This document shows, piece by piece, positions 44,374-60,107 of a stretch of DNA of 64,000 bases. Location: assembly GCF_018390695.1 (NCBI RefSeq), contig NZ_JAHBGF010000010.1, positions 359,785-423,784 on the forward strand. The letters run 5' to 3'. A program made the translations under genes and the position numbers. Origin of the DNA: Ancylobacter sonchi. Its GTDB lineage: Bacteria; Pseudomonadota; Alphaproteobacteria; Rhizobiales; Xanthobacteraceae. The notes below the pieces were generated by a model that did not search any database, was not told the origin of the DNA, and was given only the letters and a program-made list of their open reading frames with translations. Numbering within the stretch: position 1 is the stretch's first letter; every line of letters begins with the position of its first letter.

Positions 44374-44390
44374 TTGGCACGGCGATTGCT
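44374..44390 (+). promoter_or_regulatory. Sigma-54 promoter of mimABCD
   Basis: TTGGCACGGCGATTGCT matches the consensus YTGGCACGRNNNTTGCW at every position. The -24 GG is at 44376-44377 and the -12 GC at 44388-44389. It lies about 320 bases before mimA, implying a long leader, and is in the 551-base gap after adh. The same gap repeats the word CGCAGCAT at about 44207 and 44255. Confidence 0.88.
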
Positions 44391-44710
44391 ACATTAATAT
44401 TAGAACAATGCTGACATGTCCCACGGGGCAGGCCACGACAAGAACGAAGGGAAGAAGTCCGGGGAGGCTGCCGACACGGCGATGAGCCGGTTCGGTGGGG
44501 CACGGGGCGGTCAGATCAGGATCGCCGTCCCGCACCCGTTACGCCAACAGCCACCCCGGTGACTTGCACCTTTGCCCGGGCCTTCGACGCTCGCCGCATG
44601 CGCGACGGGCGAGGGCCTGCTCATGCCCGAAACCCGGCCGGCGGGCAGCGCAAACCGCTATCCGCGCCGAACGGGAGGAAATTGACCGTGGACTTCGCAC
44701 CAAGAGCAGG

Positions 44711-46390
44711 ATGGCAAACATGACAAGTACACTGACCCTGAACAAGATTACCGCGCAGAAGGGCATCTCCGTTGCCGATGCCGCGAAGAAGATAGCCGAC
44801 CTCGGGTGGAACCCCTCCTATGTGCAGGAGGCGATGACCTTCCCGACCGACTACAAGATCACCAAGGCGCCCAAGGACCCGATGAAGCAGGTGCTTCGCT
44901 CCTACTTCCCGATGCAGGAAGAAAAGGATAACCGGGTCTATGGCGCGCTCGACGCGGCGCTGCGCGGCGACATGTTCCGCAATGTCGAGCCGCGCTGGGT
45001 GGAATGGATGAAGCTGTTCCTCGCCATCATCCCGTTCCCGGAAATCTCGGCGGCCCGCTCCATGGCGATGGTCGGCCGCCTCGCGCCCGGCGAGGACCTT
45101 CGCACCGGCTTCACCATGCAGATGGTCGACGAGTTCCGGCACTCGACGATCCAGATGAACCTGAAGAAGTGGTACATGGAGAACTATGTCGACCCGGCAG
45201 GGTTCGATATCACTGAGGAGGCGTTCGGCAAGTGCTACGCCACCACCATCGGCCGCCAGTTCGGTGAAGGTTTCATCACCGGCGACGCCATCACCTCCGC
45301 CAATGTCTATCTGACCGTGGTGGCCGAGACGGCGTTCACCAACACGCTGTTCGTCGCCATGCCTTCGGAAGCGGCGCGGAACGGAGACTATGCCCTGCCG
45401 ACCGTGTTCCTGTCCGTGCAATCGGATGAAAGCCGGCACGTCGGCAACGGCCACTCGATGCTGATGTCGATGCTGAAGGAGCCGGAGAACCACCTCCTGC
45501 TCGAGCGCGACATGCGCTACGCCTTCTGGCAGAACCACGCCATCGTCGACGCCGCCATCGGTACCTTCATCGAATACGGCACCACCAACCGCGACAAGAA
45601 CAAGGAGTCTTACGCGGAGATGTGGCATCGCTGGATCTTCGAGGATTACTACCGCACCTACATGCTGCCGCTGGAAAAATACGGCATCAAGATCCATCAC
45701 GACGATGTGCAGACGGCGTGGAAGCGCATCACCGAGAAGCACTATGTCCACAAGATCGCGCAGTTTTTCTCGGTCGGCTGGCCGCTGAATTTCTGGCGCA
45801 TCGAGGCCCAGACCGACAAGGACTTCGAGTGGTTCGAGCATAAATATCCGGGTTGGTACGCCCAGTTCGGCGAATACTGGAAGTGGTACGCCAAGCTCTC
45901 GCATCGCGGCCAGACCAACGTCACCTTCAATGCCGATACTGGCTACGTTTACCCACATCGGTGCTGGAGTTCGATGGTGCCCTGCGTGATACGCGAGGAT
46001 ATCGTGACCGACACGATCGACGGCAAGCTGCACACCTTCGCCCACGAACTCGACCGCTGGACCGCGGTGGAAGCCTTTGCCGGTGAATACCAGGGCCGCC
46101 CCACCCCGGCGATGGGCCGCTTCAGCGGTCGGCGCGAATGGGAGAGCTGCTACCACGACTGGGATCTGGCGGATGCGATCCAGGATCTCGGCTTCGTGCG
46201 CACCGACGGCAAGACCCTCGTGCCGCAACCGCATCTGCGCTTCGAGGAGAAGGAGATGTGGACCCTCGACGACGTGCGCGGTCACACCATCAAGAGCCCG
46301 CTTATCACCCTGCGCGAGATGAACGAAGCGCAGCGCGAGAAGCATCTCGCCGACTACCGCGCCGGCTTCACCATCAATCCCTGCAACTGA
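44711..46390 (+). CDS. mimA: Propane/acetone-type binuclear iron monooxygenase, hydroxylase large subunit
   Basis: 559-aa alpha subunit of a soluble di-iron monooxygenase (MimA/PrmA group). The six iron ligands are visible: E111 (PFPEIS), E141 and H144 (DEFRH), E206 (VAETAF), E240 and H243 (DESRH). Their spacing equals that of methane monooxygenase. The enzyme hydroxylates propane at C2 (and in relatives acetone or phenol) with MimB, MimC and MimD. The ATG at 44711 is used, but ATG 44720 has a better-spaced AGGA. The open frame upstream to 44495 is not supported. It is expressed from the sigma-54 promoter at 44374. Confidence 0.95.
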   Translation: MANMTSTLTLNKITAQKGISVADAAKKIADLGWNPSYVQEAMTFPTDYKITKAPKDPMKQVLRSYFPMQEEKDNRVYGALDAALRGDMFRNVEPRWVEWMKLFLAIIPFPEISAARSMAMVGRLAPGEDLRTGFTMQMVDEFRHSTIQMNLKKWYMENYVDPAGFDITEEAFGKCYATTIGRQFGEGFITGDAITSANVYLTVVAETAFTNTLFVAMPSEAARNGDYALPTVFLSVQSDESRHVGNGHSMLMSMLKEPENHLLLERDMRYAFWQNHAIVDAAIGTFIEYGTTNRDKNKESYAEMWHRWIFEDYYRTYMLPLEKYGIKIHHDDVQTAWKRITEKHYVHKIAQFFSVGWPLNFWRIEAQTDKDFEWFEHKYPGWYAQFGEYWKWYAKLSHRGQTNVTFNADTGYVYPHRCWSSMVPCVIREDIVTDTIDGKLHTFAHELDRWTAVEAFAGEYQGRPTPAMGRFSGRREWESCYHDWDLADAIQDLGFVRTDGKTLVPQPHLRFEEKEMWTLDDVRGHTIKSPLITLREMNEAQREKHLADYRAGFTINPCN

Positions 46391-46463: not shown

Positions 46464-47525
46464 ATGGGCGACGTCTATACCGTCCGCTTGAATCCGGTCG
46501 GCGTCGAATTCGAGGTCGAAGAAGGGGAAACCGTCCTCGACGCCGCCTTCCGACAGGGGATTGCCCTGCCGCATGGCTGCAAGGAGGGGCGGTGCGCGGC
46601 CTGCAAATGCGTGCTGAACGAGGGCGAAGTCGAACTGAAGCCCTATTCCACGTTCGCGCTGAACGAGATGGAGAGGGACCAGAACCACGTCCTGCTATGC
46701 CGGACCCTGGCCTATTCGGACATCGAGGTCGATCTGCTCAACTTCGACGAGGAGATCCTTTCGAAATCGATACCCGTCCGAACCTTGGGCGCGCAGGTGA
46801 CGCGGGTCGTCGAACTGACCCACGACATACGGCGCCTGGAGATCGTGCTCGATCAGCCTCTCAAATTCTGGGCGGGCCAATATGTCGACATCACGCTCCC
46901 GGGGCCAGAGGCGATTACGCGCTCGTTTTCCATGGCAAATACGCCGGTCGAGGGCAAAGAACTCGCCTTCATCATCAAGAAATACCCCAACGGGAAGTTC
47001 TCCTCCCGCCTCGATGGAGAGCTCCGCCCTGGAACCGAGCTCACCGTCCGAGGCCCCTTCGGCACCTGTTTCCGACGGGAAGACAAGGGAGGAGCTCTAA
47101 TTCTAGTAGGCGGCGGCTCCGGCATGTCGCCGTTGTGGTCGATCCTTCACGACCATCTGGAGAGCGGCGAGAACCGGGAGGTCCACTTCTTCTACGGTGC
47201 ACGCACCGCAAAGGACCTGTTCTACCTTGACAGGTTCGCGCTGCTTGCGGCCGAGAATCCACGCTTCCACTTCATCCCCGCGCTTTCGGGCGCCGGCGAC
47301 GAGGACGGCTGGACCGGCGAGCGCGGCTTCATCCACGAGGTACTGAACACCCATCTGCGACGGCTAGATCTCGGCGAGGACGTCGACGTCTATGCCTGCG
47401 GCCCAGAGCCGATGATCGAGGCTCTCGTGCCGGTCCTACAGATGAACGACGTGCCGACCGAACGAATCTACTTCGACAAGTTCACGCCGGCCTCAAGCTC
47501 CACGGGGCAAATGGCCCACGCCTGA
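46464..47525 (+). CDS. mimB: Binuclear iron monooxygenase reductase
   Basis: 353-aa NADH-dependent reductase. The N-terminal [2Fe-2S] ferredoxin domain has C39, C44, C47 and C79 (GCKEGRCAACKC ... VLLC). The FAD-binding RSFSMAN motif lies near residue 155, and the NAD domain begins LILVGGGSGMSPLWS near residue 213. The C-terminal CGPEPMIEA is typical of the family. It passes electrons from NADH to the MimA/MimC hydroxylase. Confidence 0.94.
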   Translation: MGDVYTVRLNPVGVEFEVEEGETVLDAAFRQGIALPHGCKEGRCAACKCVLNEGEVELKPYSTFALNEMERDQNHVLLCRTLAYSDIEVDLLNFDEEILSKSIPVRTLGAQVTRVVELTHDIRRLEIVLDQPLKFWAGQYVDITLPGPEAITRSFSMANTPVEGKELAFIIKKYPNGKFSSRLDGELRPGTELTVRGPFGTCFRREDKGGALILVGGGSGMSPLWSILHDHLESGENREVHFFYGARTAKDLFYLDRFALLAAENPRFHFIPALSGAGDEDGWTGERGFIHEVLNTHLRRLDLGEDVDVYACGPEPMIEALVPVLQMNDVPTERIYFDKFTPASSSTGQMAHA

Positions 47526-47576: not shown

Positions 47577-48647
47577 ATGACAGCCACGCAAACGGCGCCG
47601 GTCAAGTCGGGGGCTGCAGGTTCGGCCGTCTTCGCCGATTCCGACAGCCGGAAGTACCGCTACTTCGAGCCGCGCGGCAAGCGCGCGACCCATTACGAAG
47701 ATGTCACCGTCGATGTCCAGCCTGATCCCGAGCGCTACCTGTTGCAGGACTGGATCATCTCGTTTCCGAACGGGCGCGGCGCCTACTCCAAGGACAATAC
47801 GGCTGCACTCAGCTCCAACTGGCACCTGTTCCGTGCCCCGGACCAGGAGTGGGAGCGCACCCACTACCAGCGCCAGTCCAAGATCGAGGCGATGGTGCAG
47901 GCGGTCATCGCCAATGGCCGCAAGTCGGGTGCGCCGCGGCACTTCGACAAGGCATGGGTGAAGGTGCTGCAGAACCATCTCGGTGCGTGGAAGCACGTCG
48001 AGTTCGGCCTCGGCACCTCGCTGATGCAGGCGCAGCGCTACGGCTATACGCAGATGATCAACAACGCGACGCTGACCAACTCGTCATACAAGCTGCGCCT
48101 CGCTCAGGACATCACGCTCTACCTCGCCGAAATCGGCATGGACATCGGCAATTTCGACGACGAGGCAGGCAAGCGCGCCTGGCTTGAGGACGGTACCTGG
48201 CAGGGCACGCGAGAGGCGGTCGAGTCCATCATGGGCTCGCCGGACTATCTCGAGCAGTACTTCGCCATCAATATCGTGTTCGAGCCGCTGGTCGGCGAAC
48301 TGTTCCGCTCCGGCTTCCTCATGCAGGCGGCCTCGCCGAATGGCGACTTCATCACCCCGCCGGTGATCTCGGCGGCAGAAGCCGACTATGAGCGCAACCT
48401 TGCCAACGCCATCGACCTGTTCCACCTGCTGGCGCACGACTCTGAGCACGGCGCCCACAACAAGCGCCTGTTCCAGAGCTGGCTGCACAAGCATGTCGCC
48501 CTCGCCAACAAGGCGTCGGCGGGGCTGCAGCCGATCTGGTCGCAGCCGCATTCCAAGCCTGTCCAGTATTCCGACGCGCGCACGCAGTCGGTCGAGCGCA
48601 TCGGGAAGATCCTGGGTGAGCTCGGCCTCGAACTGCCCAAGGAGTGA
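47577..48647 (+). CDS. mimC: Binuclear iron monooxygenase, hydroxylase small subunit
   Basis: 356-aa beta subunit of the di-iron hydroxylase (PrmC/MimC). Family segments are RKYRYFEPRGKRATHYEDVTV near residue 25, SSNWHLFRAPDQEWERTHYQRQ near residue 80, and DLFHLLAHDSEHGAHNKRLFQ near residue 280. It has no di-iron site of its own and holds the large subunit in the A2B2 hydroxylase. GGGAGG precedes the ATG. The stop lies six bases before mimD. Confidence 0.94.
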   Translation: MTATQTAPVKSGAAGSAVFADSDSRKYRYFEPRGKRATHYEDVTVDVQPDPERYLLQDWIISFPNGRGAYSKDNTAALSSNWHLFRAPDQEWERTHYQRQSKIEAMVQAVIANGRKSGAPRHFDKAWVKVLQNHLGAWKHVEFGLGTSLMQAQRYGYTQMINNATLTNSSYKLRLAQDITLYLAEIGMDIGNFDDEAGKRAWLEDGTWQGTREAVESIMGSPDYLEQYFAINIVFEPLVGELFRSGFLMQAASPNGDFITPPVISAAEADYERNLANAIDLFHLLAHDSEHGAHNKRLFQSWLHKHVALANKASAGLQPIWSQPHSKPVQYSDARTQSVERIGKILGELGLELPKE

Positions 48648-49132: not shown

Positions 49133-50155
49133 ATGTTCAGGACGCCGGACGGTGAGGACATCTTCATCATCGATGGCCACACGCATTTCTGGGACGGTAG
49201 CCCGGAAAACCAGGCCAACATTCATGGCAAGCAGTTCATCGACTGCTTCTATGCCTACCATACCGCCTTGAGTCCCAAGGACAAGCTGTGGACCAAGGAG
49301 CAGTTCGAGAAGTACAGCGCCGACAAGATGTACAACGACCTGTTCGTCGACGGCCCCGACGACATGGCGATCGTTCAGTCGACCTATCTCACCGAATTCT
49401 ACAAGGGTGGGTTCAACACCATCGAGCGCAACCTCGAAATGGCGAAGGCCTATCCGGAACGCTACATCGTCAACGGGGCGTTCGACCCGCGCGACGGCGA
49501 GAAGGCGCTCGAATACATCCACTTCATGAAGGAAAACTACAACATCAAGGGCGTGAAGCTCTACACGGCGGAGTGGAAGGGTGACTCACGGGGCTGGAAA
49601 CTCACCGATCCCAGCGCCTATCGCTGCCTGGAGCTGTGCCAGAAGCTCGGCATCACCAATGTCCATGTCCACAAGGGACCGACCATCATCCCGCTCGATA
49701 AGGATGCGTTCGACGTCCACGACGTCGACCATGCGGCGACCGATTTCCAGGGCCTGAACTTCATCATCGAGCATTGCGGCCTGCCCCGGCTCGACGATTT
49801 CTGCTGGATCGCGGTGCAGGAGACCAATGTCTATGGCGGTCTCGCCGTCGCGCTGCCCTTCATCCATTCCCGCCCGCGCTATTTCGCCGAGGTGATCAGC
49901 GAACTGCTGTTCTGGGTCGGTGAGGACAAGATCCTGTTCGGCAGCGACTACGCGATCTGGACGCCGCGCTGGCTGGTCGAGAAGTTCTGGAACTTCGAGA
50001 TCCCGGAAGACATCAAGCAGGAACATGGCGTCGACCTCACCCGGGAAGCCAAGCGCAAGATCCTCGGCCTCAATGCGGCCCGGCTCTACAATGTCGATGT
50101 CGAGGCGCAGAAAGCGAAGCTGAAGAACGCCTCGCTCGCGGTCGCGGCGGAGTAG
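49133..50155 (+). CDS. Amidohydrolase-2 family protein linked to propane monooxygenase
   Basis: 340-aa metal-dependent hydrolase of the PF04909 type. The N-terminal HxH is DGHTHFWDG (about residues 14-22), later His sites are in VHVHKGP and IIEHCGLPRLD, and the catalytic Asp is in FGSDYAIW near residue 270. A strong GGAGGGAG site lies before ATG 49133. Genes like this are conserved behind prmD/mimD in propane loci, but their substrate has not been established to my knowledge. It could help the monooxygenase mature or act on an intermediate. Confidence 0.88.
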   Translation: MFRTPDGEDIFIIDGHTHFWDGSPENQANIHGKQFIDCFYAYHTALSPKDKLWTKEQFEKYSADKMYNDLFVDGPDDMAIVQSTYLTEFYKGGFNTIERNLEMAKAYPERYIVNGAFDPRDGEKALEYIHFMKENYNIKGVKLYTAEWKGDSRGWKLTDPSAYRCLELCQKLGITNVHVHKGPTIIPLDKDAFDVHDVDHAATDFQGLNFIIEHCGLPRLDDFCWIAVQETNVYGGLAVALPFIHSRPRYFAEVISELLFWVGEDKILFGSDYAIWTPRWLVEKFWNFEIPEDIKQEHGVDLTREAKRKILGLNAARLYNVDVEAQKAKLKNASLAVAAE

Positions 50156-50159
50156 GGCC

Positions 50160-51029
50160 ATGCGCCGCCCCGCTATCCCACAGATCGGCGGCGATGCGCG
50201 CATCGCCGCCATATGGAACCAACTCGTCGGCGTCATGGACCCTGAACTCGACGAGTCGATCGTCGACCTCGGTTTCGTGGAAGACATTGCCATCGGCGCG
50301 GACGGCCGCGTGGATGTCGCCTTCCGCCTGCCGACCTATTGGTGTTCCCCGAACTTCGCTTTCCTGATGGCGGACGATATCGGGCAGGCGGTGCGCAGGC
50401 TGCCCTGGGCGCGGGACGTGCATCCCCGGCTCGAGGACCACATGGTTGCCGACGAGGTCAATCGCGGCACGCGTCTCGGCCTCTCCTTCGCCGATGCGTT
50501 CCGTGACTTCGAGGTCGGCGGCACGCTGGAGGGCCTGCGCGACACCTTCCTGCGCAAGGCGTTCCAGCGACGGCAGGAGGCAGTCATCCTCGGCCTCAGG
50601 CGGGCGGGCTGGTCGGACGAGGCCATCGTGACCATGGATCTCGCGACGCTGGATTGCGCCGTCATCACCGACCCCGAGGGCGCCCGCCAGAAGCCGCGTT
50701 ACCGCGAGGTCCTGCTTGCGCGCGGTCTCGCCACCCGGCCATCCGATCTCGCCGTCGTCAGCCTCGACGGCGAGGCCATCCCGGTCGCCAGCCTGCCGGT
50801 GCATCTGCGTGCGCTGCGCGCGGTGCGCATCAACATGGAAGCCAATGGCGCGCTGTGCCGCGGGCTTCTCGATGCGCGTTACGACGAGGGACCGCGCGAA
50901 GCGACCGTGCCGCCCCGCCACGCCTGCGGCGGTGCTGGAGCGTCCAAGGAATGCTGCGGCGGCTGCGCCCTTCACCCCACCGGTGTCGCACCGGCCGCGA
51001 GAGCCGCCGGCGCGCCGCTCGCCATGTGA
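50160..51029 (+). CDS. MIP18/DUF59-type iron-sulfur assembly-like protein
   Basis: 289-aa protein. Residues 15-90 match the MIP18/PaaD (DUF59) fold: WNQLVGVMDPELDESIVDLGFV and PTYWCSPNFAFLMADDIGQAV, with the usual cysteine. A ~150-residue region follows, with no known domain, and then a Cys-rich tail (HACGGAGASKECCGGCALHP). It starts four bases after the amidohydrolase stop. Given its place, it may deliver iron or assist the hydroxylase or reductase cluster. Confidence 0.82.
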   Translation: MRRPAIPQIGGDARIAAIWNQLVGVMDPELDESIVDLGFVEDIAIGADGRVDVAFRLPTYWCSPNFAFLMADDIGQAVRRLPWARDVHPRLEDHMVADEVNRGTRLGLSFADAFRDFEVGGTLEGLRDTFLRKAFQRRQEAVILGLRRAGWSDEAIVTMDLATLDCAVITDPEGARQKPRYREVLLARGLATRPSDLAVVSLDGEAIPVASLPVHLRALRAVRINMEANGALCRGLLDARYDEGPREATVPPRHACGGAGASKECCGGCALHPTGVAPAARAAGAPLAM

Positions 51030-51095
51030 ACGAGGCGACGACGCCCCGTTCCGAACTCGACCCGAACAAGCAAACAAGATGACGAGGAAACAGCC

Positions 51096-52727
51096 ATGGC
51101 AAAGATGATCCTGCATGATGGCGAGGCGAGACGCGCTCTCGCCCGCGGCGTTGGCAAGCTGGCGGCAGCGGTAGAGGCGACGCTCGGCCCCAAAGGCATG
51201 AACGCCATGGTCGACAGGCCGATCGGCACGCCCATCGTCTCGCGTGACGGCGTGACCATCGCGTCGGAGATCGAACTGCCCGACCGCTTCGAGAACATGG
51301 GCGCGCAAGTGGTGCGCGAGGTCTCGATGCAAACCAACGAGGTCGCCGGCGATGGCACCACCACCGCCATGGTGCTGGCCAACGGTCTCATCCAGAACGG
51401 CGTCGCGGCACTGGAGCGGGGCGCCAAACCCGTCGATCTGTGCCGTGGAATCGACACCGCCGTCGATCTCGTGGTGGAGACGCTGAAGGGCCGCGCACGC
51501 CCGGCCTCCGAGCGTTCCATGCTCGAGGCGGTGGCGACCATCGCGGCCACCAATCCGCACCTGGGCAATCTGGTGGCGGAGGCGCTGCACCGGGTCGGCG
51601 TCGACGGTATCGTGTCCTCCGATTACGGACTGACGATTGAAACCACGCTCGATGTCGTGGAGGGCATGTCCTTCGACCGTGGCTACATCTCCCACCACAT
51701 GGTGACCGACGTCGAGAAGATGGAAGTGGTGCTCGACGAGCCCTACATCCTGCTCACCGATCTCAAGATTCGCACGCCGCAGGAAATCGCCGGCATCCGC
51801 AAAGCGGTGGCGGAAACCGGACGCACGCTCGTCATCATCGCCGAGGAAATCGCGCCGGATGTGGTCGTCACCCTGCTGGGAGACGGCAATCGCGGCAAGG
51901 TGCTGGTGGTCAATCCGCCCGATTACGGCCACTGGCGCAAGGCGATGATGGACGATCTCGCCATCATCACCGGCGGCAAGGTCATCGCGCGCGATCTCGG
52001 CGGCCGGCTGGAGAATGTCACGCTCGACGATCTCGGAACCGCCCGCCAGGTGCGCGCCAGCGGCCGCGAGACCGTCATTGTCCGTGGCGGCGGAAACGCC
52101 GAGGAGGTCGCGGCCCGCCGGGCGCAGGTCGCCCGCCAGCACGAACTCGCTCCGCCAAACATCGAACAGGACAAGCTGAAGGAGCGCCTCGCCAAGCTCT
52201 CCGGCGGGACGGCGGTGATCTATGCCGGCGGCGTGACGCCGGTGGAGCAGAAGCGCACCATCCAGCTCATTGACGACGCACTCAGCGCGACGCGCGCGGC
52301 CGCGGAGGAGGGGATCGTCGCCGGTGGCGGCACGGCGCTGCTGCAATGCGCGCCGATCGTTGCGGCACGGCTCGGTAACCTCAACGGGGATGTCGGCGAA
52401 GGCATACGGCTGGTTCGCGAGACGCTGGCCCGCCCGGCGGCCTTCATCGCCCGCAATGCCGGCTACGACCCCGATACCATCGTTGGCAAGCTGATAGCGG
52501 CGCCGGACGGCATCGGCTTCGATGCCGCCACCGGAGAGATGACGGACATGATCGCCGCCGGCATCGTCGACCCGGTGCGCGTGACCTACACCGCGCTGCG
52601 CAACGCCGCCTCGGTCGCCACGCTGGTCCTTACCACCAACACGCTGGTTGCCGACGTCACCGACTATGTCGACCCGACCGCCGGTCCTGCCCTCGGCGGC
52701 GGCGCCGAAAGGCTCGGCCGCGCATGA
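51096..52727 (+). CDS. mimG: GroEL-like chaperonin dedicated to the monooxygenase
   Basis: 543-aa Hsp60 paralogue with ATLGPKGMNAMVD near residue 30 and the ATP-site GDGTTTAMVLA near residue 85. GGGTALLQC near residue 412 matches the family C-terminal ATPase block. It is divergent from housekeeping GroEL (for example it lacks the Gly-Gly-Met tail). No groES neighbours it. In mycobacteria the MimG chaperonin is required for productive folding of the MimA subunit, so the same job is expected. AGGAAACAGCC precedes the ATG. Confidence 0.92.
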   Translation: MAKMILHDGEARRALARGVGKLAAAVEATLGPKGMNAMVDRPIGTPIVSRDGVTIASEIELPDRFENMGAQVVREVSMQTNEVAGDGTTTAMVLANGLIQNGVAALERGAKPVDLCRGIDTAVDLVVETLKGRARPASERSMLEAVATIAATNPHLGNLVAEALHRVGVDGIVSSDYGLTIETTLDVVEGMSFDRGYISHHMVTDVEKMEVVLDEPYILLTDLKIRTPQEIAGIRKAVAETGRTLVIIAEEIAPDVVVTLLGDGNRGKVLVVNPPDYGHWRKAMMDDLAIITGGKVIARDLGGRLENVTLDDLGTARQVRASGRETVIVRGGGNAEEVAARRAQVARQHELAPPNIEQDKLKERLAKLSGGTAVIYAGGVTPVEQKRTIQLIDDALSATRAAAEEGIVAGGGTALLQCAPIVAARLGNLNGDVGEGIRLVRETLARPAAFIARNAGYDPDTIVGKLIAAPDGIGFDAATGEMTDMIAAGIVDPVRVTYTALRNAASVATLVLTTNTLVADVTDYVDPTAGPALGGGAERLGRA

Positions 52728-52861
52728 TTATGACATCCCGCCGGCGGCGTCCGTTCGTCCGGCGGGCCGTCCTCCCGACGAGACGGGGAACCCCACGCAT
52801 TGACATCGCTCCGGCCTCGTTCTGGCGAAGGCCGGCGGCAGCGACATCAAAGGAAACGACT

Positions 52862-53542
52862 ATGCGGAAGTATATCGCCGAGTTCATCGGCACCTTTACA
52901 CTGGTGTTCTTCGGCTGCGCCACCATCATTTTCATGCGCGACGAGGTGGGCCTGCTCGGCGTTGCCTTTGCGTTCGGCCTGTCGGTGGTGGCCATGGCCT
53001 ATGCGATCGGACCGATCTCCGGCGCCCATCTCAATCCGGCTGTCAGTCTCGGTGCGGTGGTGGCGGGTCGGCTGCCGATGAACGATTTCCTCGGCTATGT
53101 CATCGCCCAGTTCCTTGGAGGCATCGTCGCGGCGACGGTGCTCTATGTCATCGCCTCGGGCCGTATCGGCGGTTTCGATGCGGCGGCCAACGGATTCGCG
53201 CAGAACGGCTGGACGAAGTACGGCATGCTGTCGGCCTTCATCTTCGAGGCCACGGCGACCTTCCTCTTCCTCACGGTAATTCTCGGCGCGACGCAGCAGG
53301 GCGCGTCGGCCATCTATGCGGGGCTCGTCATCGGCCTCACCCTGGTCGCCATCCACCTTGCGGGCATAGCGGTCTCGGGAGCCTCGGTGAACCCGGCGCG
53401 CTCGCTTGGCCCCGCGTTGTTTGCCGGGAATTCGGCGATGTCGCAGGTGTGGCTCTACTTCGTCGCGCCCTGTGTCGGAGCCGTTCTTGCCGGAGCGCTT
53501 TTCCGAATGGGCGTTACACGGCATGCGCCTGTGCCGGCATGA
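52862..53542 (+). CDS. MIP-family aquaporin / glycerol-facilitator-like channel
   Basis: 226-aa inner-membrane channel with six hydrophobic helices and both NPA boxes: SGAHLNPAVSLG near residue 58 and SGASVNPARSLGP near residue 180. The arginine after the second NPA is the selectivity-filter Arg. Length and boxes resemble AqpZ more than GlpF. ATG 52862 is the family start; the upstream frame is a shadow. It is the last gene of the propane operon and may move water or a small neutral product such as 2-propanol or acetol; this is inference. Confidence 0.9.
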   Translation: MRKYIAEFIGTFTLVFFGCATIIFMRDEVGLLGVAFAFGLSVVAMAYAIGPISGAHLNPAVSLGAVVAGRLPMNDFLGYVIAQFLGGIVAATVLYVIASGRIGGFDAAANGFAQNGWTKYGMLSAFIFEATATFLFLTVILGATQQGASAIYAGLVIGLTLVAIHLAGIAVSGASVNPARSLGPALFAGNSAMSQVWLYFVAPCVGAVLAGALFRMGVTRHAPVPA

Positions 53543-53548
53543 CGGACG

Positions 53549-53580
53549 GCCTCCCGATCGGCTCGGGCCCATCGGGAGGC
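53549..53580 (+). terminator. Terminator at the end of the propane operon
   Basis: GCCTCCCGAT and ATCGGGAGGC form a perfect 10-base stem with a 12-base loop, seven bases after the aquaporin stop, followed by TTCGTC. It is a plausible intrinsic terminator with a weak T-run. Confidence 0.65.
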
Positions 53581-53703
53581 TTCGTCGAGTGACGCTTGAT
53601 TGGAAGCGTGATAAAAAACGACATAAACGAAGCGAAACAGACCCCAAACGCCAAGAATTCCGGGATCTGGTACTTGCTTAAAAATAAATGGGAGGGTGAT
53701 TTG

Positions 53704-54201
53704 GTGTATATCTTCACCAAGAGCGACGAGCCTCGAAAGGAGGACGTCGCTGCTAAGAAGATGATCGAGAAAAATTGGGGGACGATTGATCGTCTTGCCA
53801 ATCAGATATCGGGTGGCCGTTGGCAAGACCTCAAGAAGGCCCGAACGTCCAATACACCCATCGCCGAATTCGATCGAAAGAGTTTCATCGGTTACGTCTC
53901 GACGGGGCGGAGTGTGTCGACGCGTCCCTATGTCCGCATCAGCCTGAACAACCGTGTCGTTGTGGTTGATGAGGAAACCAACCGGCAGGTGCTGTTCCTC
54001 GGCGAGATCCGACGCCGCCCGCAGGGCCGGGTGTTCTGCCTCGCCACGCGCGCCAACGGCTTCTTCGATCCAGCGGCGGACGAGGTGCTGGAGGCCCTGG
54101 CTGAGCTCGATGGATGCCTGCTCCGCGAGGACGAGGTGGACGAGCCATTCAAGCAGGAACTTGCAGCTCGCCTCGGTTTCGCCGGGCCCCGCGAGGCCTG
54201 A
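53704..54201 (+). CDS. Hypothetical protein (165 aa)
   Basis: Unrecognised. The GTG at 53704 has a strong GGGAGG site eight bases upstream and is preferred over the ATG at 53596. The protein is mixed charged with a central segment STRPYVRISLNNRVVVVDEE and a C-terminal acidic helix (EVLEALAELDGCLL). The first ~150 bases are clearly less GC-rich than the neighbouring operons, a possible sign of transfer. It lies between the propane operon terminator and the second sigma-54 activator. Confidence 0.6.
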   Translation: MYIFTKSDEPRKEDVAAKKMIEKNWGTIDRLANQISGGRWQDLKKARTSNTPIAEFDRKSFIGYVSTGRSVSTRPYVRISLNNRVVVVDEETNRQVLFLGEIRRRPQGRVFCLATRANGFFDPAADEVLEALAELDGCLLREDEVDEPFKQELAARLGFAGPREA

Positions 54202-54291
54202 GCGGGCGCACCCGACGGAACCTTCGGTCCTCGTGCGCAGATGCCGGTACGAGCGCGGTTACGGGACACTGGGATGCAGACGGAAGCGCAT

Positions 54292-56349
54292 ATGATCAAG
54301 CCGCCCCTTGAGCGCAGTTCGACACCAGTTCCTTCTCGCGCGGAAGAGGACGGGGAGGCGGCGGACCACGCCGTGGAAGCCGCATCCTACGACGCCTCAG
54401 CGACGATGAAGGCGTGGGAGAATTTTCTGGGCCGGGGCCGGTCGGTCGCGCCGGGCGGCCTGGTTCGCAGCGTCATCGAGCGATCGTGGCAGCGCAGCGC
54501 CGTCTCCGGCGTCGACCCGCGCGGTCGCGGCAGTGACCTCATCGTCTCCGCCGACGAGGTGGATGGGTTGCGCCGGCACAATGGCGGCCTGCTGCAGGCG
54601 GCGGGCCAGACCTTCGAACGTCTCGCCGACATCCTCGGCGAGACCGCGACCATGGTCGTCGTCACCGACCAGCGCGGCGTCATCATCGAAACCGCCGGCG
54701 ATCCCCATATCATCGATGCCGCCCACGACATCCGTCTGGAGATCGGTGCCAACTGGGGCGAAACCGTCACCGGCACCAACGGCATCGGCACGGCACTGAC
54801 GACCGGCAAGCCGGTCTATGTGCGCGCCGCCGAGCATTTCTGCGAAGGCGTGAAGTCCTGGACCTGCATCGGCGCGCCGATCCGCAATCCGCTCGACGGC
54901 AGCGTCATCGGCGTTGTGGATTTCTCCGGTCCGCAGGACATCTTCCATCGCCATAACATCGCGCTCGGCATGATGGCGGCGAGCCACATAGAGCTGGCCC
55001 TCGCCGACCAGATGCGGGTCGAGCGCATGCAACTGCTCGAACTGTGCCTGTCCCGGCTGCAGGGCGGCGGACGCGGCGACGGCTTCGTCATCCTCGACCG
55101 CCAGGGACGGGTGATCCATCACAGCGATGCCGCAGTGGCGCGCTGGCGCCATGCCAATCCCGGCAACGAACTGCGGCTCGGCGAGAAACTGGCGGATTTC
55201 AAGGGCGACAACTGGTCGGACAACATCACGGACATTCCCGGAATCGGCAGCCAGCGCATCGAGCCGCTGATGCATGCCGGAGCCTTCTCCGGTGCCGTGC
55301 TGCTGCTCGGGCCGACGGGACACCCATCCCCCGCGGTCCGGGCCGGCACGAGCGTGGCGCTCATGGCGTTGAAGGAGGCCCGAGAGGCCATTATCGGCGA
55401 GAGCGCGGTGCTCATCGAGGCGATCGAGCGGGCCGAGCGCGCCGCGCGGGGCCAGAGCGCCGTCCTGCTGGAGGGAGAGACGGGCGTCGGCAAGGAACTG
55501 TTCGCCAAGCTCATCCACGCGGCCGGACTGACAACGGGCAAGGAGCCCCTGGTTACCTTCAATTGCGGCGCGGTCTCTAAGGAACTGCTGGGCGGGGAAT
55601 TGTTCGGCCACGCCCCCGGTGCCTTCACCGGGGCCACGCGCGAAGGGCGCGCCGGGCGCTTCGAGATCGCCGACAGCGGCGTGCTCAGCCTCGACGAAAT
55701 CGGCGAGATGCCGCTCGAACTCCAGCCCTATCTGTTGCGCATCCTCGAGGAGAACGCCGTCTACCGCATCGGCGAGGCCCGGCCACGGCCGATCAATGTG
55801 CGGCTCGTTGCCTCGACCAACCGCAACCTTAAGATCGAGGCGGCGGAGGGGCGGTTCCGCAAGGACCTCTATTTCCGCATCGGCGCGGTGAAGATCACTG
55901 TTCCCCCGCTGCGCAACCGCCATGGCGACATCGGCCTGCTGATCCACCATTTCAACCGGCAGGTGGCCGAGGCACAGGGCACCGAACCGCTGCATTTCCA
56001 GCCGGCGGTGCTCGATCTGCTCGAACGCTATGATTGGCCAGGGAATGTCCGGGAGTTACGCAACCTGGTCGAGTCGATGTCGCTGATGACGGTCGGTCGT
56101 ACTGTAGACCTTGACGATCTGCCGGAAGATTTTGTCGAGGACGTGCAGCGCCTGCACTATTCGGGCGGCAGTCCGGCCGGGACGGCCGACAGCGGCGAAG
56201 AGATCGCACGCATCGACGATGCCGAGCGCCGGCTGATCGAGCGTACGCTCGTCGCCTCGGGTGGCAACACATCGATCGCCGCCGATCGGCTGGGGATCTC
56301 GCGCAGCACGCTCTATCGCAAGCTCCAGCAATACCGGGCGAGGCACTAG
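54292..56349 (+). CDS. AcoR/AcxR-like sigma-54-dependent activator
   Basis: 685-aa activator. The first ~70 residues are polar; then VIERSWQRSAVSGVDP (as in AcoR), a GAF-type sensor (LETGTNGIGTALTTGKPV-like block near residue 160), an AAA+ domain with Walker A GETGVGKE, canonical GAFTGA at residues 443-448, and a Fis-type HTH (GGNTSIAADRLGISRSTLYR). ATG 54292 with GGAAG is preferred, though 54274 and 54241 are in frame. Similar proteins control acetone carboxylase, so acetone sensing is a guess. The next genes follow within 45 bases. Confidence 0.87.
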   Translation: MIKPPLERSSTPVPSRAEEDGEAADHAVEAASYDASATMKAWENFLGRGRSVAPGGLVRSVIERSWQRSAVSGVDPRGRGSDLIVSADEVDGLRRHNGGLLQAAGQTFERLADILGETATMVVVTDQRGVIIETAGDPHIIDAAHDIRLEIGANWGETVTGTNGIGTALTTGKPVYVRAAEHFCEGVKSWTCIGAPIRNPLDGSVIGVVDFSGPQDIFHRHNIALGMMAASHIELALADQMRVERMQLLELCLSRLQGGGRGDGFVILDRQGRVIHHSDAAVARWRHANPGNELRLGEKLADFKGDNWSDNITDIPGIGSQRIEPLMHAGAFSGAVLLLGPTGHPSPAVRAGTSVALMALKEAREAIIGESAVLIEAIERAERAARGQSAVLLEGETGVGKELFAKLIHAAGLTTGKEPLVTFNCGAVSKELLGGELFGHAPGAFTGATREGRAGRFEIADSGVLSLDEIGEMPLELQPYLLRILEENAVYRIGEARPRPINVRLVASTNRNLKIEAAEGRFRKDLYFRIGAVKITVPPLRNRHGDIGLLIHHFNRQVAEAQGTEPLHFQPAVLDLLERYDWPGNVRELRNLVESMSLMTVGRTVDLDDLPEDFVEDVQRLHYSGGSPAGTADSGEEIARIDDAERRLIERTLVASGGNTSIAADRLGISRSTLYRKLQQYRARH

Positions 56350-56393
56350 CCGTGGCTCAGGATGGCGGATGGAACCGAAGGGGCGCGGATCAG

Positions 56394-56861
56394 ATGACAA
56401 AACGGCGCTATCGCTCCGGCAGTGTTCCCCGCTCGACGGAACTTGCCTCGGCCATTCTCGACAACGCGGAGCGCGACGTGGTCTTCATGCTGCGCATTCG
56501 CGGGCAGAGTCTCGATCTGCTGTCCCGGCACTTCCGGGAGTTCATCGAACGCTCGCTCGAGTCCAATGGCGTCGGCTATGGTGACCATCCGCTGCTGCGG
56601 CTGTTCGTCGAGACGCATGGCCGGGAACTCACTGACTTCGTCGTGAGCGGCATGGCCCTGTCGCACCAGACAGATCTGAAGGTCTTCGAGCAGTTTGGCG
56701 GCGATTCGACCCATCTGTTGCGCGCGGATGTCTGGGACAGCCTGCGCGGCTACATCGAGAGTGCCGAACAACATTTCTTGTCCGGGCTCGGCGGTCTGCA
56801 CGACATCCTGGCGGAAATCGACGCCCATCGGCCTGACGCCGCTGGAGGCGTCGATGACTAG
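56394..56861 (+). CDS. Hypothetical protein, first of a small unknown module (155 aa)
   Basis: Helix-rich soluble protein, starting at ATG 56394 45 bases after the activator. A GTG at 56352 would also be in frame. Blocks: RDVVFMLRIRGQSLDLLSRHFREFIERSLES near residue 30 and HGRELTDFVVSGMALSHQTDLKVFEQFG near residue 75. I recognise no family. Its placement behind a sigma-54 activator and ahead of coiled-coil and WD40-like proteins suggests one functional unit. Confidence 0.65.
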   Translation: MTKRRYRSGSVPRSTELASAILDNAERDVVFMLRIRGQSLDLLSRHFREFIERSLESNGVGYGDHPLLRLFVETHGRELTDFVVSGMALSHQTDLKVFEQFGGDSTHLLRADVWDSLRGYIESAEQHFLSGLGGLHDILAEIDAHRPDAAGGVDD

Positions 56862-56873
56862 GATCGCAAAGGT

Positions 56874-57158
56874 TCAGTGCGGCCGGCGGCCCGGCCTCGT
56901 GGTGTCCGTTGCTCCGAGCAGGCTGGTCGGTTTCTCCCGCAGGGTACTGTGCCCGGCCGGCATCAGCGCCTCGCGCGCCGTCCCCGTGAGCGCGGTGAGC
57001 GCAACCTCCTCGGCGGCGATGTCCTCAGGCGCGCCGCTCGCCGCCGCCTGCCGCAAGGCTCCGGTACAGACATGGCCTCGGCCAAGCTGGCCGTCGGCGC
57101 CGGTGGCCAGAGTCGCAAAGAACAGCCTGCCGATGGTGTCGAACATGACAGCGATCAT
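56874..57158 (-). CDS. Possible small protein on the opposite strand (94 aa)
   Basis: The 375-base gap between the 155-aa and coiled-coil genes has open frames on both strands. The plus-strand frame (56854-57240) overlaps both neighbours but has almost no Asp or Glu in its first hundred residues, typical of a shadow. The minus-strand frame (MIAVMFDTIGRLFFATLATG...) has balanced composition and GC-ending codons. No convincing ribosome-binding site is seen, so either could be non-coding. Confidence 0.3.
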   Translation of the reverse strand: MIAVMFDTIGRLFFATLATGADGQLGRGHVCTGALRQAAASGAPEDIAAEEVALTALTGTAREALMPAGHSTLREKPTSLLGATDTTRPGRRPH

Positions 57159-57236
57159 ACGGAATGACCGGATGGGCATTGTCCCGTTTGGCGTGGCGCC
57201 GTGTCCAGTTGAACTGGATCGACCGGAGGGCGTCGG

Positions 57237-57539
57237 ATGACGGACCCGCAGCAACTGCGCACCCTGCTCGGCGAGCGTCTGGAGATCGTACAGGAGATCG
57301 CCCGCCTGAATGCGCGTCAATTGCAGAACCGGCAGGTTTTCAGCGGCCTCGAGCTTGAGGTGATGCGGTGCGAGCGCGACGTGTCACGGTCCGGGGACAT
57401 GGCAGCGGTGGCGGATCGTCTCGAACAGGCCCGGGCGCAACGCGACAGGGCTGAAGCCCGGCTCGTTGAGGACGATCACGAACTCTTGGAATGGCAGAGG
57501 CGACTCGACGTTGTGGATCGCCGGATCAGTAGAAGTTGA
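57237..57539 (+). CDS. Small coiled-coil protein (100 aa)
   Basis: Almost entirely heptad-patterned and highly charged: GERLEIVQEIARLNARQLQN, RLEQARAQRDRAEARLVEDD, LEWQRRLDVVDRRI. It is a likely soluble coiled coil. No family is recognised. The WD40-like gene follows closely, so an oligomeric scaffold or adaptor for the propeller is one idea. Confidence 0.6.
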   Translation: MTDPQQLRTLLGERLEIVQEIARLNARQLQNRQVFSGLELEVMRCERDVSRSGDMAAVADRLEQARAQRDRAEARLVEDDHELLEWQRRLDVVDRRISRS

Positions 57540-57571
57540 ACCGGGTTGGCGAGTGCATCGGCGGGGGAGAC

Positions 57572-58726
57572 ATGGAAATGAGCATGACGGCAGCCGACGC
57601 ATCGCCGCTTTTCGCACTTATGGCGCGGCAATGGCGCCTGGACGCGGAGGTCCAAGCCTGCGCTTTCGCCCATGATGGCGGCAGCCTTGCTTTCGCCCTG
57701 GCGGATGGCACGCTCGCCAGCGTTTCGATGGACGACCCTGAGGCGGCGGGAACGCGCTGGCGAATGTCGATCGAGGACGGCCGCTCCACGATTTCGCCGC
57801 GCGCCCGTCCTGTGTTGGCGCCCGCCAGGGTGCCGGTAGGCGAGGGAGCGCTGCGTCTCGTGCCGTTCGGTCGGTCCGGATTTTTGGTCGGTGGCGCCAC
57901 CGGCCGGTTGGTACGCATCGAGGCGGATGGTTCGGCGGAGGTGGTGGTCGAGTACGACAGCACGGGGGTCGAGGCCATCGCGGCCACACGCGCTGGCACG
58001 ATGGGCGACGGCGCGGCCTGGGTCGCTGCGAGCGGCTGCGTCACCCGCTACGCCCCTGATGGCGGCACGGCGCGAGCGATGGCGTGCTACGAGGGGATCG
58101 CGCGAGTAGTCGCGCCGACCCCCGACAGCGGAAGGGTAGCTCTCGGCTTCGAAGCGAGCCTGTCCATCGTCGATCTACGGGACGCATCTAGCGACCGCTT
58201 CGAGATTGCTGTCGGGCCGGTCGAGGCCCTGTCCTGGTCGCCGGACGGATGCCGGCTGGCCGCAGGCCTTCTCGATGGCGGTGTCGCCCTGATCGATATG
58301 GCGGACCGGCGTGTGCTCCGGCTGCCCGACTATCCCGCTGCCGTGCGCACGCTTGACTGGAGCCCCGATTCGCGGCGCCTCGTGACCAGCGGCGCCTTCC
58401 GCACCATTGTCTGGACGATCGACGAGGGCCGTGAGCGACCTCGGACCATTGGAACCGGGCGATCTGGTTTCGTGGCCGTCGAGGCGGCTCGTCTCCACCC
58501 CCATTTGTCCCTCGTCGCGGCCGGCTATGAAAACGGCATGATCGTGATCACGGCGATCGGTCATCCCGACGAACTGGTCATTCGCGATCCGGCGCCGGGT
58601 AGCCTGCGCGACCTGAGCTGGTCGGCCGACGGTGAACACCTGGCCTTTCACGCAGCTGAGGGGTGGGTCGGTGTAATCGACCTGCCCGCGCACATGTTCA
58701 AACAGATCGACAGGAGGATAGCATGA
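57572..58726 (+). CDS. WD40-like beta-propeller protein (384 aa)
   Basis: Beta-propeller built of repeated blades: ACAFAHDGGSLAFALADGTL near residue 30, VEALSWSPDGCRLAAGLLDG near residue 220, VRTLDWSPDSRRLVTSG near residue 260, and LRDLSWSADGEHLAFHAAEG near residue 350. No signal peptide is seen, so it should be cytoplasmic. The ATG at 57572 has GGGGGAG; an ATG at 57536 overlaps the previous gene. No enzyme motif is visible; a protein-protein scaffold is likely. Confidence 0.75.
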   Translation: MEMSMTAADASPLFALMARQWRLDAEVQACAFAHDGGSLAFALADGTLASVSMDDPEAAGTRWRMSIEDGRSTISPRARPVLAPARVPVGEGALRLVPFGRSGFLVGGATGRLVRIEADGSAEVVVEYDSTGVEAIAATRAGTMGDGAAWVAASGCVTRYAPDGGTARAMACYEGIARVVAPTPDSGRVALGFEASLSIVDLRDASSDRFEIAVGPVEALSWSPDGCRLAAGLLDGGVALIDMADRRVLRLPDYPAAVRTLDWSPDSRRLVTSGAFRTIVWTIDEGRERPRTIGTGRSGFVAVEAARLHPHLSLVAAGYENGMIVITAIGHPDELVIRDPAPGSLRDLSWSADGEHLAFHAAEGWVGVIDLPAHMFKQIDRRIA

Positions 58727-58905
58727 CCTCGACCGACAAGATCGCCGAGAGTAAGGACAAGTTCTTCGAGGAAATCGCGGCCCTCGCCGAGCGGATGATC
58801 GCCGAGCACGGTCGCGAATTCACGATGGGCGCACTCATTCTTGCTGCTCGCTTTATCGCGGAGAATAAGGGTTTGGGCGACCCCCAGCTCGAGCATGCAA
58901 ACTGA
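58723..58905 (+). CDS. Small protein (60 aa) coupled to the WD40-like gene
   Basis: A 60-residue, amphipathic protein beginning MTSTDKIAESKDKFFEEIAA. The ATG overlaps the WD40-like stop (ATGA), so translation is coupled and the pair is probably made in ratio. A hydrophobic patch (TMGALILAARFIAE) suggests membrane or partner contact. No family is recognised. It is the last gene of the module. Confidence 0.55.
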   Translation: MTSTDKIAESKDKFFEEIAALAERMIAEHGREFTMGALILAARFIAENKGLGDPQLEHAN

Positions 58906-59069
58906 GTTTGGTACGGTGTTTCTACTCAGTTCCGGCGTTTGGTGGATTGGATTGAGGTTGAAACGTTCCGGCTCGCTTGCTCATCCGCCGAAGGTTCAGG
59001 CGCTGCCGGTTCGGGCCACGCGCCATAAGCAGAAGTTCGCTGGTACGACGACGAGTGGCCGGTTTGGGG

Positions 59070-59854
59070 CCAAATCGCGCCATCTAGGTCAAATTCCGCC
59101 CATTCCGCCATGCGCAGTTCGCCGGGTCGGGGGAACAGCAGTGCCATCAGCTTGAGAGCCGTCTGTGTGGTGGGGGCTGCCCGTCGAAGTCGTCAATGGC
59201 GCGTAGCATGGCTCCAATATCGACAGGCTCGACGACTGCCGCGCGATGCTTCACCTTCGGCGTTCGAAGAGCGCCCTTCAGTGCCGCGGTTGGGTCGTTC
59301 TCTGCCCGCGCCGTGGCGATCGCATAGCGGAAGACTGCGCCAATCGTGGATCGCAGGCGCCTCGCCCTCTCATGTGTGCCGCGCCGTTCAACTGCCTGCA
59401 GCACCGCTAGCGCTTCGGCGGAGCTGATATCAGCTATCGGTCGAGAGCCGAGCAGGGGGCGAGCGAAGCTCAGCAGCCACTTCGTCTTCTCGACAGTCGC
59501 TTCCGCCCGATCCTCCGCAATCTGGCGCTCGATGTATTCGTCCGCCACATGGTTGAAGGTGTTGCCGCGGGCGATCTTCCTGGCCAGCCTCTCCAGTTTC
59601 GAGACGACACCAGGATCGTCCCCTGTCGCCAACTTTTCCTTGGCTTGATCCCGCCTTGTGCGGGCTTCCTTCAGCGAGACCTCCGGATAGGCGCCGAAAG
59701 CGAGCTGCTTCTGCTTGCCATCGAATCGATAGGCCATACGCCAGAGCTCGCTGCCGGTAGGTGTCACGAGCAGGTGCAGACCGCCGCTATCTGACAATTT
59801 GATCGGCTTGTCGGCTGCCTTTGCAGTGCGGACGGCGATGTCAGTCAAGGGCAT
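59070..59854 (-). pseudogene. P4-type integrase, truncated and frameshifted
   Basis: The first 235 codons (MPLTDIAVRTAKAADKPIKL...) are a normal P4/phage-type tyrosine recombinase N-terminus with the SAM-like core-binding domain (FNHVADEYIERQIAED...). Near 59150-59175 the frame shifts, and the catalytic domain continues as MALLFPRPGELRMAEWAEFD, including the first catalytic Arg. It ends soon after GAIW; the rest, with the His-x-x-Arg and Tyr, is gone. It lies 177 bases from the 3' end of tRNA-Phe, the usual attachment site. Confidence 0.85.
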
Positions 59855-59868
59855 TTGGCACCTGCGCT

Positions 59869-59937
59869 GTTGGCATCGTGATTTGTTGGCATTCGGCTAT
59901 GCCAACAAAGATGCCAACAAATTCGGTGAATGCCAAC
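59869..59937. repeat. Five GTTGGCAT/ATGCCAAC octamers before the integrase
   Basis: GTTGGCAT occurs at 59869-59876 and 59885-59892, and its reverse complement ATGCCAAC at 59899-59906, 59911-59918 and 59930-59937. Five copies in 69 bases between int and tRNA-Phe resemble integrase arm-type or regulator sites. Confidence 0.7.
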
Positions 59938-60031
59938 GAGCCGCCGCGAGCCTCGGAGGGCGTCAAACTCGGCGCAACTATCGGATTTTCTTGGGATTTT
60001 GAGCTTCAGCGAGCGCTGCTGAGCGGGAGAA

Positions 60032-60107
60032 TGGTGCCCAGGGACGGAGTCGAACCGCCGACACTGCGATTTTCAGTCGCATGCTCTACCAACTGAGCTA
60101 CCTGGGC
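60032..60107 (-). tRNA. tRNA-Phe (GAA)
   Basis: Read on the minus strand it is a 76-base cloverleaf with the D-arm GCTCAGTTGGTAGAGC, anticodon loop CTGAAAA (anticodon GAA), T-arm GGTTCGACTCC and an encoded CCA. The acceptor stem is GCCCAGG / CCTGGGC. Its 3' end faces the integrase remnant. Confidence 0.97.

What the first reader, a model, noticed from the sequence alone, without database searches (positions are those of the whole stretch)
54292..58905. Undescribed module: sigma-54 activator, 155-aa helical protein, coiled coil, WD40-like propeller and 60-aa protein
A second AcoR/AcxR-like activator heads a tight run of genes that I cannot assign to any family, with very short spacings and an ATGA overlap at the end. 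A coiled coil, a propeller and small helical proteins look like an assembled structure rather than enzymes. Location next to a propane operon suggests a role in gas or ketone use, stress or compartment-like organisation, but that is speculation. No sigma-54 promoter was found inside the module, so its target may be elsewhere.
Basis: partly seen in the sequence, partly recalled or inferred. Interest (0 to 1): 0.7.

Follow-up and report, generated by a model that had tools for sequence, protein, structure and literature searches.

The report
Hidden helper set of propane oxygenase
Beside the genes for a propane-oxidising type of enzyme, a bacterium related to Ancylobacter carries a small set of uncharacterised genes, one for a predicted propeller-shaped protein, that recurs with this enzyme's genes in many bacteria and was found almost nowhere else in the genomes sampled, and whose proteins likely help to build or switch on that enzyme.

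Summary
The reported gene run is real and belongs to the neighbouring propane monooxygenase (prmABCD) cluster. Two genes were missed: u201 (about 53701-54201) and an antisense ORF, M90 (56874-57146), in a 375-nt gap. H155, M90, CC100, S60 and u201 match no Pfam family; the propeller is WD40. In 397 genomes of the order, 22 have PrmA; H155 is in 19, all among those 22; S60 (E<=1e-6) is in 21 of the 22 and in one other genome, there with in-frame stops. In 299 genomes of the phylum, PrmA and S60 mark the same 4. In 18 of 20 divergent loci a sigma-54 site (<=1 mismatch) faces prmA; in 0 of 20 does one face the module. Codon adaptation of the module is modest, against an abundant compartment. Best reading (inferred, 0.42): a low-abundance accessory complex that helps assemble or activate the Prm hydroxylase, S60 being its most conserved part. 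Main rival: a regulator of the sigma-54 activator. Against exclusivity: Methylocella, Azospirillum and Rhodococcus prm clusters lack the module, and 2 of 6 Burkholderiales genomes with a lone H155 show neither PrmA nor S60. My literature searches found no description of it.

The parts
44375..44390 (+). sigma-54 (-24/-12) site TGGCACGGCGATTGCT upstream of prmA
   Evidence: exact match; only site with <=1 mismatch in the 64 kb
44699..46390 (+). prmA, di-iron hydroxylase alpha subunit
   Evidence: PF02332 207 bits; two ExxH motifs
46464..47525 (+). prmB, reductase
   Evidence: Fer2, FAD-binding and NAD-binding domains
47577..48647 (+). prmC, hydroxylase beta subunit
   Evidence: PF02332 243 bits
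48644..49024 (+). prmD, coupling protein
   Evidence: ORF; relatives annotated MmoB/DmpM family at this place in prm clusters
51096..52727 (+). GroEL-like chaperonin
   Evidence: PF00118
53701..54201 (+). u201, unknown protein beside the activator (start inferred from homologue lengths, codon not checked)
   Evidence: 547 homologues at E<=0.001; no Pfam match
54292..56349 (+). S54act, AcoR-type sigma-54 activator
56394..56861 (+). H155, helical protein of unknown family
   Evidence: 348 homologues; no Pfam or confident fold match
56874..57146 (-).
57237..57539 (+). CC100, coiled-coil candidate
57572..58726 (+). WD, WD40 propeller protein
   Evidence: PF00400 and PF12894 over cut-off
58723..58905 (+). 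S60, 60-aa protein, the most consistently PrmA-linked member

Best explanation
The run is part of a conserved accessory gene set tied to the propane monooxygenase cluster, and its proteins (H155, M90, CC100, the WD40 propeller and S60) likely form a low-abundance complex that would help assemble or activate the PrmABCD hydroxylase together with the GroEL-like chaperonin of the same cluster. Shown: the genes, their near-exclusive occurrence with PrmA in the samples searched, the recurrent gene order, and the lack of a good sigma-54 site facing the module in divergent loci. Inferred: low abundance; that the proteins bind one another, with the propeller as platform and the coiled coil and small helical proteins as partners; that they act on the enzyme; that S60 touches the hydroxylase or its chaperonin; and that the neighbouring activator, with u201, drives the prm promoter at 44375.
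For: (1) Co-occurrence: 22 of 397 genomes of the order have PrmA; H155 is in 19, all of them PrmA-positive; S60 at E<=1e-6 is in 21 of the 22 and in one other genome, there with in-frame stops. Fisher p about 1e-29 and 1e-32, not corrected for relatedness. In 299 genomes of the phylum PrmA and S60 mark the same 4. Of 72,556 plasmids 13 have S60, and 11 of these also have PrmA; one of the other two keeps a PrmA fragment beside a deletion and one lies near transposases. (2) S60 is found beside prm in L125 and L141, where no S54act-type gene was seen in the roughly 20-30 kb fetched, and is not seen in L132 and L133, where that activator is present. (3) In L124 CC100 and S60 lie between a sigma-54 site (1 mismatch) and prmA on one strand; in Caballeronia zhejiangensis WD and S60 directly precede prmA; in Skermanella S60 follows groEL with one unassigned gene between. 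(4) Nearest possible starts give a 4-nt overlap of CC-WD in 8 of 33 and of WD-S60 in 8 of 44 loci (this choice favours overlaps). (5) Codon adaptation in the window: module 0.41-0.54, prmA 0.72, groEL 0.66; module GC3 is below that of structural genes in 43 of 50 loci.
Against: No interaction or function was tested. Prm clusters of Methylocella tundrae (L132), Azospirillum oryzae (L133) and two Rhodococcus (L134, L143) show no module, and 10 of 21 PrmA-bearing plasmids have no S60 match, so enzymes of this family exist without it. In most loci scanned the module is not under the prm sigma-54 site, which an assembly factor made with the enzyme might be expected to share. In Ancylobacter and Bradyrhizobium loci it directly follows the sigma-54 activator, and in three Rhodobacterales plasmids it lies near an rpoN gene, which favours regulation. 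Six Burkholderiales MAGs carry H155 away from prm genes; PrmA and/or S60 was found elsewhere in 4 of the 6, neither in 2. Two MAGs with H155 and WD (L055, L057) showed no PrmA and no S60 in their genomes. Low codon adaptation is not specific: prmB scores 0.50 and 17 other window genes average 0.56, sd 0.17. Partial correlations of divergence on 15 loci gave no clear partner. M90 has an in-frame stop in G004.
Confidence: 0.42

Rival explanations
1. Regulatory complex: the module proteins sense substrate or enzyme state and hold back or release the sigma-54 activator (or sigma-54 itself), so that prm is expressed only when needed.
For: The module follows the activator in Ancylobacter and Bradyrhizobium loci; an rpoN gene lies near it in three Rhodobacterales plasmids; no good sigma-54 site faces it in 20 divergent loci; codon adaptation is at or below that of the activators; sMMO is a precedent for an accessory protein (MmoG) needed by the activator (PMC5874634 passages).
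Against: Activator and S60 separate in both directions (L125, L141 against L132, L133, limited stretches); CC100 and S60 lie inside the apparent prm unit in L124; the activator already has its own GAF domain.
Confidence: 0.3
2. Physical scaffold: the propeller and coiled coil gather PrmABCD, reductase and dehydrogenases into a cluster or tether them, without being needed for assembly or transcription.
For: WD40 and coiled-coil proteins are common interaction platforms (general knowledge); strict link to the enzyme cluster.
Against: Modest codon adaptation and position outside the sigma-54 unit in most loci scanned suggest amounts below those of the enzyme; WD and CC100 are missing beside prm in some loci that keep S60, such as L048, L125 and L141.
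Confidence: 0.1
3. S60 (or H155) is a genuine small subunit of the hydroxylase in these bacteria and the other proteins are its helpers.
For: S60 is the most consistently PrmA-linked member and lies next to prmA in several lineages.
Against: S60 is outside the sigma-54 unit in most loci scanned and its codon adaptation is below prmA, prmC and prmD; related enzymes in Methylocella, Azospirillum and Rhodococcus show none. The H155 model matched no solved gamma subunit, which is inconclusive.
Confidence: 0.1

Closest known systems
Group V soluble di-iron monooxygenase clusters prmABCD (Gordonia TY-5, Methylocella; PMC9213486 passages)
   Same: prmABCD with a GroEL-like gene, an amidohydrolase and an iron-sulfur assembly protein; PrmA 63% identical to a Rhodococcus plasmid copy and 77% to Methylocella tundrae
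   Different: the clusters examined here from Methylocella tundrae, Azospirillum oryzae and two Rhodococcus strains show no H155, CC100, WD or S60
sMMO accessory genes mmoG, mmoR, rpoN, mmoD (PMC5874634 passages)
   Same: a GroEL-like protein and a sigma-54 activator beside a di-iron monooxygenase; some prm clusters here also carry rpoN; MmoD is a precedent for a small protein assigned to assembly of the di-iron centre
   Different: no WD40 protein is named in the passages seen; the H155 and S60 profiles had no convincing match among solved-structure sequences; MmoD was not compared directly
GroEL requirement of other SDIMOs (SmoABCD, PMC11057499 passages; MimG recalled)
   Same: accessory folding genes travel with the monooxygenase
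   Different: there smoABCD with two dehydrogenases and GroEL gave growth on pentane and hexane in one host; no propeller or small helical proteins are named in the passages seen
WD40 repeat proteins
   Same: Pfam PF00400 and PF12894 above cut-off; best solved-structure sequence matches are WD40 proteins such as 2ymu and 5yzv
   Different: no specific functional subfamily was identified; here tied to prm loci

Membership tests
Group V SDIMO prmABCD cluster | di-iron hydroxylase alpha subunit (PF02332, ExxH motifs) | tested here: met
   PF02332 207 bits; EFRH and ESRH
Group V SDIMO prmABCD cluster | order alpha, reductase, beta, coupling, with a GroEL-like gene | tested here: met
   that prmABCD is group V from PMC9213486 passages, the meaning of the four letters recalled
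Group V SDIMO prmABCD cluster | oxidises propane | not testable with these tools
   no expression or activity data
AcoR-type sigma-54 activator (S54act) | GAF, sigma-54 AAA+ with GAFTGA, Fis-type HTH | tested here: met
   PF01590, PF00158, PF02954; GAFTGA
WD40 repeat protein (WD) | WD40 repeats above the curated cut-off | tested here: met
   PF00400 40.2 bits against 27; PF12894 43.6 against 22.9
WD40 repeat protein (WD) | closed propeller fold, number of blades | not tested
   no structure was predicted for WD
MmoD-like assembly protein | sequence relationship of H155 or S60 to a known SDIMO assembly protein | tested here: inconclusive
   no convincing hit among solved-structure sequences or Pfam; MmoD itself not compared directly
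SDIMO gamma subunit | fold of H155 like sMMO gamma | tested here: inconclusive
   no confident match for the H155 model; absence from the list is not exclusion
Gas vesicle or compartment shell | shell or gas-vesicle protein domains in the module | tested here: not met
   no such Pfam family among the matches of the module proteins

The most novel reading that the evidence does not exclude
Many proteobacterial propane monooxygenases run with a dedicated WD40-centred assembly and activation machine, undescribed until now, made of a propeller and four unassigned protein families including an overlooked antisense gene; its 60-aa protein S60 acts directly on the hydroxylase and is a missing factor for using these enzymes in other hosts.
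Probability: 0.28. Interest if true: 0.78.

Novelty: new variant of a known kind. Interest (0 to 1): 0.6.

Why it matters
Soluble di-iron monooxygenases oxidise gaseous alkanes and many pollutants, and the need for companion genes limits their use in other hosts. A gene set this tightly tied to one of them names small, testable candidates for missing assembly or control factors, and gives S60 as a simple marker for these clusters in metagenomes. It also shows that a good part of a well-studied kind of gene cluster is still unread.

Tried and rejected
X128: the + strand frame 56854-57240 overlaps both neighbours and looked like a gene. It is interrupted in two of the four genomes aligned (G004, G016), while the opposite strand keeps a conserved protein in three of the four (in G004 with a stop), so I read it as the shadow of M90.

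Mirror-tree on 15 loci: all ten families compared diverge together and partial correlations are weak (H155-S60 0.36, H155-GroEL 0.32, u201-S54act 0.40), so it does not decide between assembly and regulation.

Codon adaptation: the first run used a faulty reference set (shadow ORFs) and was discarded; the second used 19 ORFs of a ribosomal-protein region of the same genome.

The H155 hit in G083 (L012, E 3e-4) was judged spurious: only a short piece matches. The three S60 hits at E 0.002-0.007 were treated as chance. Rfam: nothing at gathering threshold in 41000-60000.

Literature: full-text searches listed no paper that I recognised as describing this module; they cover open-licence papers only. 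Of four papers I saw passages (PMC9213486, PMC5874634, PMC11057499, PMC8784404), of the others only listings. A figure legend in PMC9213486 marks genes of unknown function in its SDIMO clusters; I could not see the figure, so they may include some of these genes.
Full report
What is in the sequence. The five reported genes exist at the stated places. Pfam identifies the activator as AcoR-type (GAF, sigma-54 AAA+, Fis HTH) and the 384-aa protein as WD40; the 155-, 100- and 60-aa proteins match nothing at E<=1. NCBIfam gives no match above a curated cut-off among the hits shown for the eight proteins scanned. Two genes were missed. u201 lies upstream of the activator (about 53701-54201; start inferred from homologue lengths). 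M90 lies on the minus strand (56874-57146) in the 375-nt gap between H155 and CC100. Aligning that gap from four genomes (window, G005, G004, G016) shows a conserved protein on the minus strand, intact in three and with a stop in G004; the plus frame is interrupted in G004 and G016. M90 relatives are annotated as hypothetical genes in Paracoccus and Gemmobacter plasmids and in Shinella; Ponticoccus has a small gene of similar look in a similar place.

What lies around it. Upstream on the same strand are an alcohol dehydrogenase, prmA, prmB, prmC, prmD, an amidohydrolase, a FeS_assembly_P protein, a GroEL-like chaperonin and an aquaporin. PrmA carries the ExxH motifs and its nearest solved relatives are sMMO alpha chains. 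prmABCD clusters of Gordonia TY-5 and Methylocella are placed in group V (PMC9213486, passages).

Conservation. H155 was found in 12 of 151 relatives (the window's own genome included), one of them judged spurious. Wider regions of the 10 others all carry PrmA and the module. A genome scan with the H155 alignment gave 27 named loci: in 19 of 27 prm genes are in the fetched stretch (Ancylobacter, Bradyrhizobium, Methylobacterium, MAGs); six Burkholderiales MAG loci have H155 without any of the query genes, and two small MAG contigs (L055, L057) have H155 and WD without prm genes. PrmA and S60 were not found elsewhere in those two genomes. In a matrix of 54 prm-linked loci, chosen by me from these finds, S60 is present in 48, WD beside prm in 45 and H155 in 41 (WD leaves out one weak distant hit in L124). 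Of the 6 without S60, one has it on another contig (G127), one contig ends before it (G292, none elsewhere), and the rest are Methylocella tundrae, Azospirillum oryzae and two Rhodococcus. M90 was found by BLAST in 10 of the 54, six of which supplied the queries; I saw one more by eye in L126. Profile searches of a protein collection gave 348 H155, 3013 S60 and 547 u201 relatives (the best 120 of each seen).

Co-occurrence in whole genomes. In a sample of 397 genomes of the order, PrmA (E<=1e-150) is in 22, H155 (E<=1e-6) in 19, all within the 22, and S60 in 25 at E<=0.01: 21 of the 22, one degenerate copy with stops in G314, and three weak hits (E 0.002-0.007) that I treat as chance. The PrmA genomes without H155 are G252, G267 and G281; the one without S60 is G292. 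Fisher p is about 1e-29 and 1e-32, not corrected for relatedness. In 299 genomes of the phylum, S60 (E<=1e-4) and PrmA (E<=1e-100) mark the same 4, all already in the order sample. Among 72,556 plasmids PrmA (E<=1e-100) is in 21 records and S60 (E<=0.01) in 13; 11 records have both. The two others are Rhizobium CB3171, where only the last 37 residues of PrmA and part of WD remain beside prmBCD, and Phyllobacterium zundukense, where WD and S60 lie between two ISL3 transposases without prm genes. The 10 PrmA records without an S60 match are 4 Azospirillum, 2 Methylocella, 3 Rhodococcus and 1 Indioceanicola. H155 is in 5 plasmid records, all of them PrmA-positive.

Burkholderiales. Six MAGs carry H155 as a lone gene. 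PrmA was found elsewhere in 3 of 6 and S60 in 3 of 6; 4 of 6 have at least one. In G153 S60 lies at a contig end. In G152 the prm cluster has WD and S60 directly before prmA. So H155 can be unlinked and still co-occur; but 2 of 6 show neither, which counts against an exclusive link or reflects incomplete MAGs.

Promoters. The window's only -24/-12 site with <=1 mismatch is exact and lies at 44375, upstream of prmA. The 7 colinear relatives fetched to that point have such a site in the same place. In 20 loci where prmA and H155 diverge, 18 have a site with <=1 mismatch facing prmA and none has one facing H155. Two of the 20 have a 2-mismatch site facing H155; one (L122) has none at all and one (L139) only a 2-mismatch site facing prmA. 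Single-base shuffles expect about 2 sites in total at <=2 mismatches. In two Caballeronia plasmids and G152 the site lies between S60 and prmA; in G252 it lies upstream of CC100-S60-prmA; L125 and the prmA upstream region of L138 have none with <=1 mismatch. So in most loci scanned the module is not part of the apparent sigma-54 unit; in one lineage CC100 and S60 are. In colinear loci read-through from prm into the module cannot be excluded.

Expression level. With ribosomal-region genes of the same genome as reference, codon adaptation is 0.717 prmA, 0.712 prmC, 0.677 prmD, 0.743 amidohydrolase, 0.656 groEL; 0.541 H155, 0.405 CC100, 0.463 WD, 0.536 S60, 0.484 M90; 0.605 and 0.534 for the two activators; prmB is also low at 0.497; 17 other window genes have mean 0.556, sd 0.169. 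Module GC3 is below that of the structural genes in 43 of 50 loci, and so is the activator's in 41 of 47. This is modest evidence against an abundant structure.

Variation. The activator and the module separate in both directions: Azospirillum and Methylocella have the activator without the module; Skermanella and L125 have S60 without an activator of this type in the fetched stretch. Three Rhodobacterales plasmids place WD and S60 close to an rpoN gene. In Paracoccus, Gemmobacter and Caballeronia zhejiangensis a gene of similar size stands in CC100's place but did not match its profile. The window's own genome has one sigma-54 gene, on another contig.

Structure. AlphaFold gives H155 as mainly helical (mean pLDDT 81.2) and u201 as helices plus a small beta part (80.5); neither has a confident relative among solved structures.

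Interpretation. The tie to Prm is shown for the samples searched; the mechanism is inferred. I favour an accessory complex acting on the hydroxylase, because S60 persists with the enzyme where the activator type and the rest of the module are not seen, and because S60 and CC100 sit next to prmA or groEL in several lineages. Regulation of the activator is a serious rival, given the position next to the activator or rpoN and outside the sigma-54 unit. A compartment or gas-vesicle role is not supported. No paper describing the module was found in the searches made.

Noticed in passing
window 59147-60107 (-): A short integrase ORF (Arm-DNA-bind_3 and Phage_int_M matched, 235 aa, no catalytic-domain match) next to tRNA-Phe (60032-60107) just downstream of S60, as if the prm cluster lay at an island edge.
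   Followed up: partly
window 49127-50155: The amidohydrolase of the cluster has codon adaptation as high as prmA (0.743 against 0.717), suggesting an abundant protein of unknown role.
   Followed up: no
window 52862-53542: An aquaporin gene sits inside the prm cluster; it is found in 7 of 54 loci of the matrix.
   Followed up: no
G005 (L013, L014, L032; Ancylobacter lacus): prmB matches only to residue 115 and no prmC, prmD or amidohydrolase was found before the FeS protein gene, while the module is intact.
   Followed up: no
L135, L138, L139 (Rhodobacterales plasmids): An rpoN gene lies beside the prm module, a parallel to rpoN in the sMMO cluster (title in the reference list of PMC5874634).
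   Followed up: partly
L049, L051-L054, L056 (Burkholderiales MAGs): H155 stands alone; in L049 and L052 it is near an ORF that looks like isocitrate dehydrogenase (recognised from its translation, not by a search).
   Followed up: partly
L173, L174, L175 (plasmids): prm clusters apparently decaying by deletion or IS insertion: Phyllobacterium zundukense, Rhizobium CB3171, Shinella HZN7.
   Followed up: partly
window 41027-42886 (-): A second AcoR-type activator (AcoR1) diverges from the alcohol dehydrogenase gene and recurs in relatives.
   Followed up: no
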